From: Sanghuangporus weigelae
Lineage: Eukaryota; Basidiomycota; Agaricomycetes; Hymenochaetales; Hymenochaetaceae
DNA: 64,000 nt
Reading direction: 5' to 3'
Assembly (NCBI GenBank): GCA_033182465.1
Contig: CP137324.1
Coordinates: 1,612,001-1,676,000, forward strand
Below, one piece after another: positions 5,589 through 63,224 of the stretch (position 1 is its first letter; each line of letters starts with the position of its first letter). The notes beneath the pieces were generated by a model. The model worked only from the letters and a program-made list of their open reading frames with translations. It did not search any database and had not been told where the DNA came from. The translations under genes were made by a program, and so were the position numbers.

Positions 5589-6297
5589 TATAATTTGGCT
5601 GCGGATATCAATTCATATCATTCCTATTTTTATATTTTCCTTATGCAGCGAGTCTGACTCGCTTGAGCGCCGCACAGCTTTTCGGGATCTTTCTTTTCGC
5701 ACAGGATGCATACGTACCATTTATTTTTACGACCACGCTTGTGTCTATAACTCCAAAGCTAGTATGAATTCTATCTTGGCGCATGAGGCAGCACGATATC
5801 ACGAAGATGAAAACAATTATGAAGGTTAGCTATACACCCGTTCAATCGCACGTACTTTTTCCTTCTTTCTTTGAAGGTAACACACCGGGCAAAAACTCAT
5901 TTTCGAACCGTGAAAATGTTACCCAGAATGGAAAAAGAGCCAATCGGATGAGAGCTCACCCGTTCCGATCAAAATTTCTAAGGGCGCGGAATGAGTTTTT
6001 GCCCGGTGTGTAAGAATTTATGCATGTGAACAAGAGATGATATGCTACCTTCAAGCTATAATGATGTAATTTCAATAAAGAAAGGTTACACATTGCTTGA
6101 GAAAGACTTGCATAGGTTCTCTCTGTGTGTGAACCATCCATTCCTCTAAATACAGCAAAGTGTTGCAATATGTATCATAGCCTTCCAGTTAAAGGGCAAA
6201 AATTGGAGGATAATCGGCAGAATCCATAATATATTAATGTATTTGGCAAAATTCCCTTTAACGACAAGGAAAGACTGTTGAGATGACGTTGGGAGGA
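5589..6297. other. intergenic, no gene seen outside the 130-bp element
   Basis: Apart from the miniature element at 5881-6010 I see no supported gene here. Short open frames lack motifs, splice logic or plausible starts. The stretch is AT-rich and runs into the long inverted repeat at 6298. Confidence 0.6.
5881..6010. mobile_element. 130-bp foldback miniature element, copy 1 (CACTA-like ends)
   Basis: A 130-bp element with terminal inverted repeats CACACCGGGCAAAAACTCAT and its complement at the other end, flanked by a 3-bp direct duplication TAA (5878-5880 and 6011-6013). It has no coding capacity. A second copy lies in opposite orientation at 15298-15427 and differs at only about 2 of 130 positions. 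CAC-starting ends with 3-bp target duplications fit the CMC (CACTA/Plavaka-like) group; the superfamily is inferred from ends only. Confidence 0.9.
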
Positions 6298-8947: not shown

Positions 8948-9551
8948 TAGTGTTCCGACCGTATGCGTATAATGCGTATACGGCCGTATCGTATCGTATA
9001 AGAGAAAAATAAGAAAATATACGGCCCGTATATATACGTCCGTATCCCATATAGAGTTGGGAAAGAAATGCCGTATACGGAACTCCACCTCGCACGCTCT
9101 TTGGAAGGGTATTTGTCCCTGCCTTCCATGCGGGGAGCAGATTTTTTTCTTTGGAAATCATAATTTGAGTGTTACCAAGCACGGCAGGACTGGTGTCAGC
9201 GAAAATTTTGGCAATATGCAACCAGGTAAGCGATTATTCGCACACATCCGGTGATCACATATACGCTGATCTGCTCGGACAGCTATGAAAATCATCCCTA
9301 AGCACCATTATCAGTGAACAGAACCTTCATTGCATCGAGATAGACTTTGAACACTTTGAAAAAATATTTGTTAGTATGTCCTGATGTGGTAGAGTTACGG
9401 AACCTCCGTATACGCCGTATTCCCGTATACGGGTGTTCCGTATCCGTATGAGACCTTGACCACCAAATATACGGCCGTATTTCATACGGTCGTATCCGTA
9501 TAAGACTCGAGTTATACGGCCGTATCCGTATACGATACGGTCGGAACCCTA
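8948..9551. mobile_element. hAT-like miniature element, copy A (intact, not interrupted)
   Basis: A 604-bp element bounded by TAGTGTTCCGACCGTAT on the left and the complement of TAGGGTTCCGACCGTAT on the right, flanked by a perfect 8-bp direct repeat GGTGTTGT (8940-8947 and 9552-9559). The subterminal parts are packed with CGTATACGG / CCGTATA units in both orientations, as expected for hAT subterminal transposase-binding repeats. No transposase frame is present, so it is non-autonomous. The 8-bp duplication and the TAGGG-type ends support hAT. It carries the undisturbed sequence at the point where copy B was later entered by another element. Confidence 0.9.
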
Positions 9552-14537: not shown

Positions 14538-15084
14538 TGTGAGATTAGGGTTTCGACCGTATCGTATACGGATACGGCCGTATACTTTAGACTCTATACG
14601 GATACGGCCGTATAGATACGACCGTATATTTGAGTGCTCAGACCTTTATACGCATACGGGAGGCCCGTATACGGCTTATATGGCGCATACGGCAGCATAC
14701 TATTTTAGAAAAAATAATTAAAATAATTACACGGTCGCTCTAAGTGTTTAAGTATCATAAGGTCCCTAATTGTTCCTGCCTTCAATCTAGCACGTCGGAG
14801 AGCAATTGTGTCGCGTCCGCTTGAGAAAATACGCTCAACAGCAACGAGCCTGAACAATCTTAGTAAGCAATTAGTATAGCACGAAGGACAAAGCTTACCA
14901 GGAATACAATGAATGTCTCTGGCAAGACGAGATAAAATGGGAAATCGAGCACGGTCGCACGGAACTTGTCAATGTGTGTGACACGAAGAAAAAAAACTCA
15001 CCGGAACTCCTCTACTCAGTGCCGACTAGTACTGTGCCGTATATGGCGCATATGCCGTATACGGCATTTCTTTCCCAACTCTAT

Positions 15085-15611
15085 CACAGCGGGCAAACAG
15101 TTATTTAGACACGGACTAAATCCATAACTAGATGACAAATGAAATTTGAAATTTGATAATGCATTTGGGTGCATAATATATTTGATGTCTTTTCCTTAGC
15201 TAAATGCTAAACTATATTTGAAATAACAAAAGGGATTTAGATTCGGATTTAGTACACAAAGAAATAACTATAATTACTAAAACTAGAAAGTATAGTTCAC
15301 ACCGGGCAAAAACTCATTCCGCGCCCTTAGAAATTTCGATCGGAACGGGTGAGCTCTCATCCGATTGGCTCTTTTTCCATTCTGGGTAACATTTTCACGG
15401 TTCGGAAATGAGTTTTTGCCCGGTGTGGTTATTTCTTTGTTTACCAAATTCGAATCTAAATCCCTTTTGTTATTTCAAATATAGTTTAGCATTTAGCTAA
15501 GGAAAAGACATCAAATATATTATGTGACTAAATGCATTATTATATTTCAAATTTCATTTGTCATCTAGTTATGGATTTAGTCCGTGTCTAAATAACTGTT
15601 TGCCCGCTGTG
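15085..15611. mobile_element. long-inverted-repeat miniature element inside copy B
   Basis: A 527-bp element with ends CACAGCGGGCAAACAGTTAT and its complement, flanked by a 3-bp direct duplication TAT (15082-15084 and 15612-15614). Its arms are long inverted repeats of about 180 bp with few differences, so before the inner insertion it was almost a perfect palindrome. The ends share the CAC..CGGGCAAA pattern and the 3-bp duplication with the 130-bp family, suggesting mobilisation by related CACTA-like transposases. It carries the 130-bp element in its centre. Confidence 0.9.
15298..15427. mobile_element. 130-bp foldback miniature element, copy 2 (innermost layer)
   Basis: Reverse-oriented copy of the element at 5881-6010, flanked by a 3-bp duplication GTT (15295-15297 and 15428-15430). 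It sits in the centre of the 527-bp long-inverted-repeat element. By eye only two bases differ between the two 130-bp copies. Confidence 0.92.
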
Positions 15612-15726
15612 TATACGGGAATCGGCCGTATATTTTCTTCTTTTTCTCTTATACGATACGGCCGTATTGCGTATACGGAAAGCCGTATACGCATTATACG
15701 CATACGGTCGGAACACTATGTGAGAT

Positions 15727-62578: not shown

Positions 62579-63224
62579 TAGGGCTCCGCAGCGTATCGTA
62601 TATAGCGTATACGATACGGCGTATACGCTATACGTGCGTATGCGTATCAGCTCAAGCAACTGGATTATACGCCCGTATGCGTATGATATTTTGGAAATTT
62701 TGGCGTATATGGCGTATACGTGCGTATATTTTGGGGCCTGAAAACAGTAAGAAATCTCGCACTCGAATGAGAAATCAAATCTGCCTCTTTGCTTCGAAAT
62801 TAGACATAACTCACCGAAATCTTACTGTTGGGTGTGTGGCCACTGTCTCTAGTACACGTCCAGCATAATATTTAGAGTTGTCTCGCTTATAATGCAAAAA
62901 TTACGTAATTTCATACTATCTGACAGAATTCTGGCAGAACCTCGTCATTTGTGCACAAAAATTAGTATTTGTATTAGGTGTCTCACCTTAAGGAACGCAA
63001 CCTTAAGGAACGCAACGAAAGTATTTCTAATGCACAAACATGATGTGCAATGGTCAGAATGTTGTGCTGTTGGTGTGGACCCGTATATGCCGTATACGCC
63101 GTATATATACGCGCGTATCCGTATCTCAGTTCAAAATCAAATATACGCTCGTATTTTATACGAGCGTATGCGTATATGCCTAAAATTATACGCGCGTATC
63201 GTATACGATACGCGCGGAGCCCTA
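62579..63224. mobile_element. hAT-like miniature element, copy C (variant subfamily)
   Basis: A 646-bp element with ends TAGGGCTCCGC and its complement, flanked by a perfect 8-bp duplication ATAGATAC (62571-62578 and 63225-63232). The subterminal regions consist of CGTATA / GCGTATACG units like those of copies A and B, but the end reads GGGCTCCGCGCGTATC instead of GGGTTCCGACCGTATC, so it is a sister subfamily. No transposase is present. Confidence 0.9.

What the first reader, a model, noticed from the sequence alone, without database searches (positions are those of the whole stretch)
14546..15718. Three-layer nest of miniature DNA transposons with every target duplication intact
A hAT-like element (8-bp duplication TGTGAGAT) contains a 527-bp long-inverted-repeat element (3-bp TAT), which itself contains a 130-bp foldback element (3-bp GTT). 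All ends and duplications are readable, so the order of arrival is fixed: hAT-like first, 527-bp second, 130-bp last. Seen directly; superfamily names are inferred from end motifs and duplication sizes.
Basis: partly seen in the sequence, partly recalled or inferred. Interest (0 to 1): 0.75.

Follow-up and report, generated by a model that had tools for sequence, protein, structure and literature searches.

The report
Three nested mobile elements in a mushroom
One small jumping-DNA element landed inside a second, which had already landed inside a third, and other copies of each element in the same mushroom genome confirm the borders and the order; this is an ordinary kind of event, but it leads to a transposon system that also carries pieces of two essential host genes.

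Summary
The nest is real and its borders hold. Outer element 14546-15718 (8-bp duplication TGTGAGAT): of 16 other copies examined none has the insert, and 12 have their own exact 8-bp duplication. Middle element 15085-15611 (TAT) is 394 bp without its guest; 18 of 22 family members with both ends readable have an exact 3-bp duplication. Inner element 15298-15427 (GTT): all 58 copies examined are 130 bp, 52 with an exact 3-bp duplication. The order outer, middle, inner follows from the nesting and from empty sites.

Middle and inner look like one EnSpm/CACTA-like system. They share the tip CACA[G/C]CGGGCAAA with two 19-20 kb tip pairs that enclose two of the genome's three Transposase_21 matches. 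Such ends also enclose fragments of TPR/MLP1 and of Pol II subunit RPB1, a Pack-CACTA-like habit that I did not find described for fungi in four searches of one library. The outer element is hAT-like by duplication length and ends only; no partner was found. The middle element lies inside outer-type elements at 4 of 31 places, more than uniform insertion gives.

The nest is a new example of a known kind. The genome is most likely Sanghuangporus weigelae.

The parts
14538..14545 (.). outer target duplication, left copy TGTGAGAT
14546..15084 (+). outer hAT-like element, left part (TAGGGTTTCGACCG...)
   Evidence: 16 other copies examined, 12 with exact 8-bp duplications
15615..15718 (+). outer hAT-like element, right part (...CGGTCGGAACACTA)
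15719..15726 (.). outer target duplication, right copy TGTGAGAT
15082..15084 (.). middle target duplication, left copy TAT
   Evidence: one copy in outer elements without the insert
15085..15611 (+). middle EnSpm/CACTA-like MITE, 527 bp including the guest, 394 bp without it; tip CACAGCGGGCAAA
15085..15268 (+). middle element, left arm of 184-bp inverted repeat
   Evidence: 175 of 184 paired
15428..15611 (-). middle element, right arm of 184-bp inverted repeat
15612..15614 (.). middle target duplication, right copy TAT
15295..15297 (.). inner target duplication, left copy GTT
15298..15427 (+). inner 130-bp EnSpm/CACTA-like MITE; tip CACACCGGGCAAA, 21-bp terminal inverted repeats
   Evidence: 58 copies examined, 52 with exact 3-bp duplication
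15428..15430 (.). inner target duplication, right copy GTT
   Evidence: one copy in 9 of 9 aligned middle elements without the guest
5881..6010 (-). second copy of the inner 130-bp element in the window, duplication TTA (TAA on + strand)
8948..9551 (-). second outer-family element in the window, 604 bp, duplication ACAACACC on both sides
62579..63224 (-). diverged outer-family relative, 646 bp, duplication GTATCTAT on both sides

Best explanation
Three separate insertions. First, a non-autonomous hAT-like element of about 640 bp landed at TGTGAGAT, a cut-and-paste event with 8-bp staggered cuts. Second, a 394-bp near-palindromic non-autonomous element landed in it at TAT. Third, a 130-bp element landed in the middle one at GTT. 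Middle and inner are non-autonomous members of one EnSpm/CACTA-like system. A Transposase_21 enzyme made by larger elements elsewhere recognises the tip CACA[G/C]CGGGCAAA and cuts targets with 3-bp stagger. Shown: borders, duplications, independent copies, empty sites, order, shared tips, and transposase matches inside two tip pairs with matching flanks. Inferred: that this transposase moved the small elements, and that the outer one was moved by a hAT transposase.
For: Independent copies with their own duplications for all three layers. Empty sites for the middle unit in 16 of 16 outer copies and for the inner unit in 9 of 9 aligned middle copies. An independent middle+inner nest with the inner unit at another position (L115, C12:514713-515238, duplications AAA and TTA). 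An inner copy inside an RPB1-carrying element at C2:928693 with its empty site in L127. Of the three Transposase_21 matches of the genome, two lie inside the tip pairs C1:195805-215722 and C6:2027145-2045731, which bear CACAGCGGGCAAA tips and matching flanks TTT (in a run of T, so weak) and ATT. The 13-bp tip is the same in these, in the middle unit and in one of two TPR-carrying elements, and differs by one base in the inner unit, in the RPB1-carrying one read and in the other TPR-carrying one.
Against: Between the transposase-bearing elements and the small ones only the 13-bp tip is clearly shared; the rest of the first 45 bp is near chance. The canonical CACTA pentamer is absent (CACAG/CACAC). 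Of 22 middle-family members, 2 have 4-bp duplications and 2 none; 6 of 58 inner copies lack an exact duplication. No hAT transposase with the outer ends was seen: one PF05699 match, no such tips within about 1.5 kb.
Confidence: 0.9

Rival explanations
1. The nest is one composite element that moves as a unit, and the inner parts belong to it.
For: All three layers are intact and their ends are still readable.
Against: 16 of 16 other outer copies lack the middle unit at this site; middle and inner units occur alone with their own duplications. One search listed only the window as a full-length match (40 of 239 candidates scored).
Confidence: 0.02
2. Middle and inner units are PIF/Harbinger (Tourist-like) MITEs.
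For: 3-bp duplications; among the 52 exact inner ones the commonest are TAA (9) and TTA (7), both of the TWA type.
Against: 36 of 52 inner duplications are not TWA. Ends are CACA...TGTG, and the same tips enclose Transposase_21 in two of its three genome matches. A Harbinger transposase family (PF13359) was not searched.
Confidence: 0.06
3. The outer unit belongs to another superfamily with 8-bp duplications (KDZ/Zisupton, P or Novosib) and not to hAT.
For: KDZ transposases are present (3 matches at two places). No hAT transposase is tied to these ends. The 16 exact duplications do not show the recalled hAT pattern nTnnnnAn clearly: T at position 2 in 4 of 16, A at position 7 in 8 of 16 (list). 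The one paper found for the terminal consensus YARNG, which TAGGG and TAGTG fit, gives it for the P superfamily (PMC2820524, one passage).
Against: A dense subterminal motif (22 ATACGG/CCGTAT in 643 bp against 20 in 60,723 bp of the window outside outer-family elements) and TAGGG-type ends resemble Ac/Ds-type hAT elements (recalled). P transposases were not searched.
Confidence: 0.25

Closest known systems
EnSpm/CACTA (CMCT) transposons of fungi, as in PMC12730594 (passages seen)
   Same: Termini CAC...GTG and 3-bp duplications, which that paper states as consistent with EnSpm; Transposase_21 inside the tip pairs here. Fungal proteins with Transposase_21 are also in PMC1636069 (passages)
   Different: The pentamer is CACAG or CACAC and not CACTA; the elements in the window are 130 and 394 bp and have no transposase gene
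Pack-CACTA / Pack-TYPE elements of plants (PMC8903248, start of abstract and passages seen)
   Same: Non-autonomous ends enclosing pieces of ordinary host genes, moved as a unit (TPR/MLP1 and RPB1 carriers here)
   Different: Host is a basidiomycete; duplication 3 bp (that paper gives 5 nt for CACTA elements in rice and maize). The window's own elements carry no gene piece that I saw
hAT element that captured histone H3 in Pseudocercospora fijiensis (PMC6710886, abstract read)
   Same: A fungal DNA transposon that multiplied a housekeeping-gene piece
   Different: Different superfamily and gene; ascomycete
Ac/Ds-type hAT elements (recalled)
   Same: 8-bp duplications, TAGGG-type ends, dense short subterminal motif
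   Different: No transposase tied to these ends here

Membership tests
EnSpm/CACTA (middle and inner) | 3-bp target duplication | tested here: met
   18 of 22 middle-family members and 52 of 58 inner copies
EnSpm/CACTA (middle and inner) | termini 5'-CAC...GTG-3' | tested here: met
   CACA[GC]CGGGCAAA...TGTG; criterion from passages of PMC12730594
EnSpm/CACTA (middle and inner) | canonical pentamer CACTA | tested here: not met
   CACAG or CACAC; PMC12730594 accepts CAC..GTG for fungal EnSpm, so I call it EnSpm/CACTA-like
EnSpm/CACTA (middle and inner) | autonomous partner with Transposase_21 and the same tips | tested here: met
   2 of 3 PF02992 matches lie inside two CACAGCGGGCAAAT tip pairs with matching flanks; likeness to the small elements is limited to about 13 bp
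EnSpm/CACTA (middle and inner) | mobilised by that transposase | not testable with these tools
   needs an excision or transposition assay
hAT (outer) | 8-bp target duplication | tested here: met
   window plus 12 of 16 other copies, and 2 further relatives in the window
hAT (outer) | hAT transposase in an element with the same ends | tested here: inconclusive
   one PF05699 match, no such tips within about 1.5 kb; flanks further out could not be fetched
hAT (outer) | target consensus nTnnnnAn (recalled) | tested here: inconclusive
   T at position 2 in 4 of 16, A at position 7 in 8 of 16
PIF/Harbinger (considered for middle and inner) | duplication TWA | tested here: not met
   16 of 52 exact inner duplications are TAA or TTA
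Pack-TYPE (large relatives only) | host-gene fragment between the transposon's inverted repeats | tested here: met
   TPR/MLP1 fragment in L034 and L035; RPB1-matching DNA inside 7 of 7 CACACCGGGCAAAG tip pairs of 2.5-3.3 kb, read as protein in one of them

The most novel reading that the evidence does not exclude
One EnSpm/CACTA-like system in this mushroom moves tiny MITEs as well as Pack-type carriers of RPB1 and TPR/MLP1 fragments, and its members preferentially land in other MITEs (middle in outer at 4 of 31 places; inner in middle at 2 places). Older elements with AT/CG palindrome arrays would then serve as landing pads, so that nests form by targeting and not by accident.
Probability: 0.3. 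Interest if true: 0.55.

Novelty: new member of a known kind. Interest (0 to 1): 0.4.

Why it matters
The nest gives a clean relative clock for three transposon families, and its tips point to a likely autonomous partner, so cross-mobilisation becomes directly testable. The same system carries pieces of RPB1 and TPR/MLP1. That extends Pack-CACTA-like gene capture, described for plants in the papers I saw, to a basidiomycete. The repeated landing of the middle element in outer elements gives a testable case of insertion preference for older transposons.

Tried and rejected
Composite-unit reading: rejected (0 of 16 outer copies carry the insert).

Unpaired inner tips as a sign of autonomous inner elements: rejected. 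The 16 loci fetched for this reason all hold ordinary 130-bp copies whose other end has more mismatches.

The 12.7-kb tip pair at C8:1516172-1528859 as an autonomous element: rejected. It looks like a middle element split by a Ty3/gypsy-like retrotransposon (my reading of the frames, no library search), and its flanks do not match.

Plavaka and KDZ transposases as partners: matches exist (8 and 3), but none lies in a tip pair that I listed, and no such tips were seen within about 1.5 kb of the 9 that came with loci. Their wider flanks could not be fetched.

Academ (3-4 bp duplications, recalled) was considered because of occasional 4-bp duplications. The DOI that I recalled for its paper is not held; the Transposase_21 result made it less likely but does not test it.

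A first Pfam scan of L034/L035 frames gave nothing; PF07926 searched on the genome then matched there (over the family's cut-off in L035, below it in L034).

Dropped rows: 9 of the 31 middle-family places were left out of the duplication tally because only one tip was readable or, for C8, the ends lie 12.7 kb apart and do not match. The place count of 31 is my merging of the 64 rows (40 of 73 candidates scored). In the inner tally, matches under 116 bp were skipped and L079 was dropped because its 40-base flanks equal those of L080. One tip pair of the list, C12:226604-226731, is 128 bp long and was not fetched. L032 and L033 were counted as middle-in-outer on sequence likeness with one outer end found; only the window and L031 have both 8-bp copies.

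Full report
OBSERVATION. The three layers are in the sequence exactly as described: outer 14546-15718 between TGTGAGAT copies, middle 15085-15611 between TAT copies, inner 15298-15427 between GTT copies.

GENOME. The window is C7:1612001-1676000 of a 33.87-Mb genome in 13 contigs. The protein read from one window frame is 91% identical to part of a Sanghuangporus vaninii protein. The S. weigelae paper (PMC10803629; start of abstract and passages seen) gives 13 contigs, longest 4.49 Mb, N50 2.77 Mb; here C1 has 4,491,666 and C5 2,774,212 bases. I infer S. weigelae. The paper's total is 33.96 Mb, slightly larger.

OUTER LAYER. 16 other copies were fetched with flanks; 12 have exact 8-bp duplications, all different. 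Of the other four, one has an altered right end, one has a disturbed flank, and two seem to have exchanged flanks (see Noticed in passing). Fourteen of the 16, those without other large insertions, were aligned and are 93.8-98.7% identical to the window's outer unit. None of the 16 has the middle unit at this site. Two of them carry other inserts, a 1084-bp palindromic element in each. Further fragments and diverged relatives exist. No autonomous partner was found.

MIDDLE LAYER. One search, with the left arm and spacer as query, matched 31 places (64 rows; 40 of 73 candidates scored). Without its guest the window's unit is 394 bp, two 184-bp arms around a 26-bp centre; 175 of 184 arm positions pair. 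Of 22 members with both tips readable, 386 to 4864 bp long, 18 have an exact 3-bp duplication, 2 a 4-bp one and 2 none. Nine copies of 393-394 bp are 88-94% identical to the window's in one or other orientation, and all nine show the empty site of the inner unit.

INNER LAYER. The 21-base tip pattern, with up to 2 mismatches, occurs 66 and 67 times on the two strands against 0 for the reversed control, so there are roughly 66 copies or more. I examined 58: all 130 bp, 94.6-100% identical to the window's copy, 52 with an exact 3-bp duplication and none with a 4-bp one. The window copy differs from the majority sequence at 1 of 130 positions. The base counts around the 52 exact sites lean to a symmetric target, TnnC TnA GnnA. 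By sequence this family looks the youngest of the three, in line with the nesting order.

SUPERFAMILY OF MIDDLE AND INNER. Pattern CACASCGGGCAAAK occurs 31 times in the genome, its reversed control 0 times. Among the hits are two pairs 18.6 and 19.9 kb long in the right orientation, with matching flanks ATT (C6) and TTT (C1, in a run of T and so weak). A search of the whole genome for Transposase_21 gave three matches; two lie inside exactly these two pairs, in frames of 575 and 443 aa without stops. By my rough estimate the chance of this is a few in a million. The 13-bp tip is identical in these, in the middle unit and in one of the two TPR-carrying elements (the other differs at one base), and differs at one base in the inner unit. 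PMC12730594 (passages) calls CAC..GTG termini with 3-bp duplications consistent with EnSpm. Against: no CACTA pentamer, and beyond the tip little is shared.

GENE-CARRYING RELATIVES. Two large elements share about 181 bp of the middle unit's arm: L034 1141-5476 (duplication AAT) and L035 1475-6338 (TTC). Each encloses DNA like the TPR/MLP1 nucleoporin gene: PF07926 matches fall in both, in L034 below the family's cut-off, and the likely parent gene at C9 (L126) is about 81-91% identical along several blocks that run across apparent introns. L034 also holds a 1.54-kb repeat with 40 other near-full rows, some about 10.66 kb apart, so probably a solo LTR. Seven CACACCGGGCAAAG tip pairs 2.5-3.3 kb long all contain matches to one RPB1-like stretch. 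That stretch was read in one of them (L127); its frames match RNA_pol_Rpb1 domains 2 to 5, and one frame matches Pol II RPB1 chains best. Five of the seven have an exact 3-bp duplication, one a 4-bp one, one none. RPB1-like pieces (78%) also lie inside both transposase-bearing pairs. The parent RPB1 gene was not identified; C7:1781248 (85%) and C9:1721101 (79%) are candidates. Pack-CACTA elements are described from plants (PMC8903248, passages). In fungi a hAT element captured histone H3 (PMC6710886, abstract). Searches of one library showed me no Pack-CACTA described in a fungus; of the two papers holding 'Pack-CACTA' with 'fungal', passages of both were read and each only cites the Arabidopsis work. 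This is a limited search.

REPEATED NESTING. At 4 of 31 middle-family places the element lies inside an outer-type element: the window, L031 (diverged outer, 8-bp duplication CCTGTCTA on both sides), L032 and L033. If outer-type DNA made up as much as the whole 1.16% that PMC10803629 reports for MITEs, P would be 0.0004; at 5.7% of the genome it would be 0.1. Inner in middle: the window and L115, P about 0.0003 under uniform insertion. Uniform insertion is a weak null, since transposons cluster in tolerant regions, so targeting is not shown.

VERDICT. The finding is right. As a nest it is a new example of a well-known kind. Its value lies in the intact clock and in the gene-carrying EnSpm-like system behind two of its layers.

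Noticed in passing
L017 and L024 (C1:4370073-4370744 and C1:4432254-4432911): Two outer copies in opposite orientation seem to have exchanged flanks: AGCATCAT lies left of one and right of the other, and ACTGAAC lies at the two remaining sides (on one of them three bases away from the element). This suggests an inversion of about 62 kb by recombination between them.
   Followed up: partly
window 8948-9551 and 62579-63224: Two more outer-family elements in the window, each with an exact 8-bp duplication (ACAACACC, GTATCTAT). The second has a different core motif (CGCGCGTAT in place of CGGCCGTAT).
   Followed up: partly
L028 518-1601; similar DNA in L029, L034, L051, L073: A 1084-bp element that is a palindrome over its whole length (93% self-complementary), inserted in two outer copies.
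   Followed up: no
L118 (C11:1403200-1403900): A middle-type element of 402 bp with fully paired arms whose flanks are themselves an inverted repeat (79% paired over 147 bp) and which has no 3-bp duplication; it may be the centre of a larger palindrome.
   Followed up: partly
outer copies, chiefly L024-L027: Substitutions in outer copies lean to C>T/G>A at CpG: 72 changes at 106 CpG positions against 41 at 183 other C or G positions, compatible with methylation decay.
   Followed up: partly
C6:21177-24403: An RPB1-like and a TPR/MLP1-like match lie about 2.6 kb apart; possibly one element carries both.
   Followed up: no
L079 and L080 (C6:1242115 and C6:1238512): Two inner copies 3.6 kb apart have identical 40-base flanks, so the stretch around them was duplicated after insertion.
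   Followed up: no
C5:367674-368084: Third Transposase_21 match of the genome (484-aa open frame), not tied to any tip pair that I listed.
   Followed up: no
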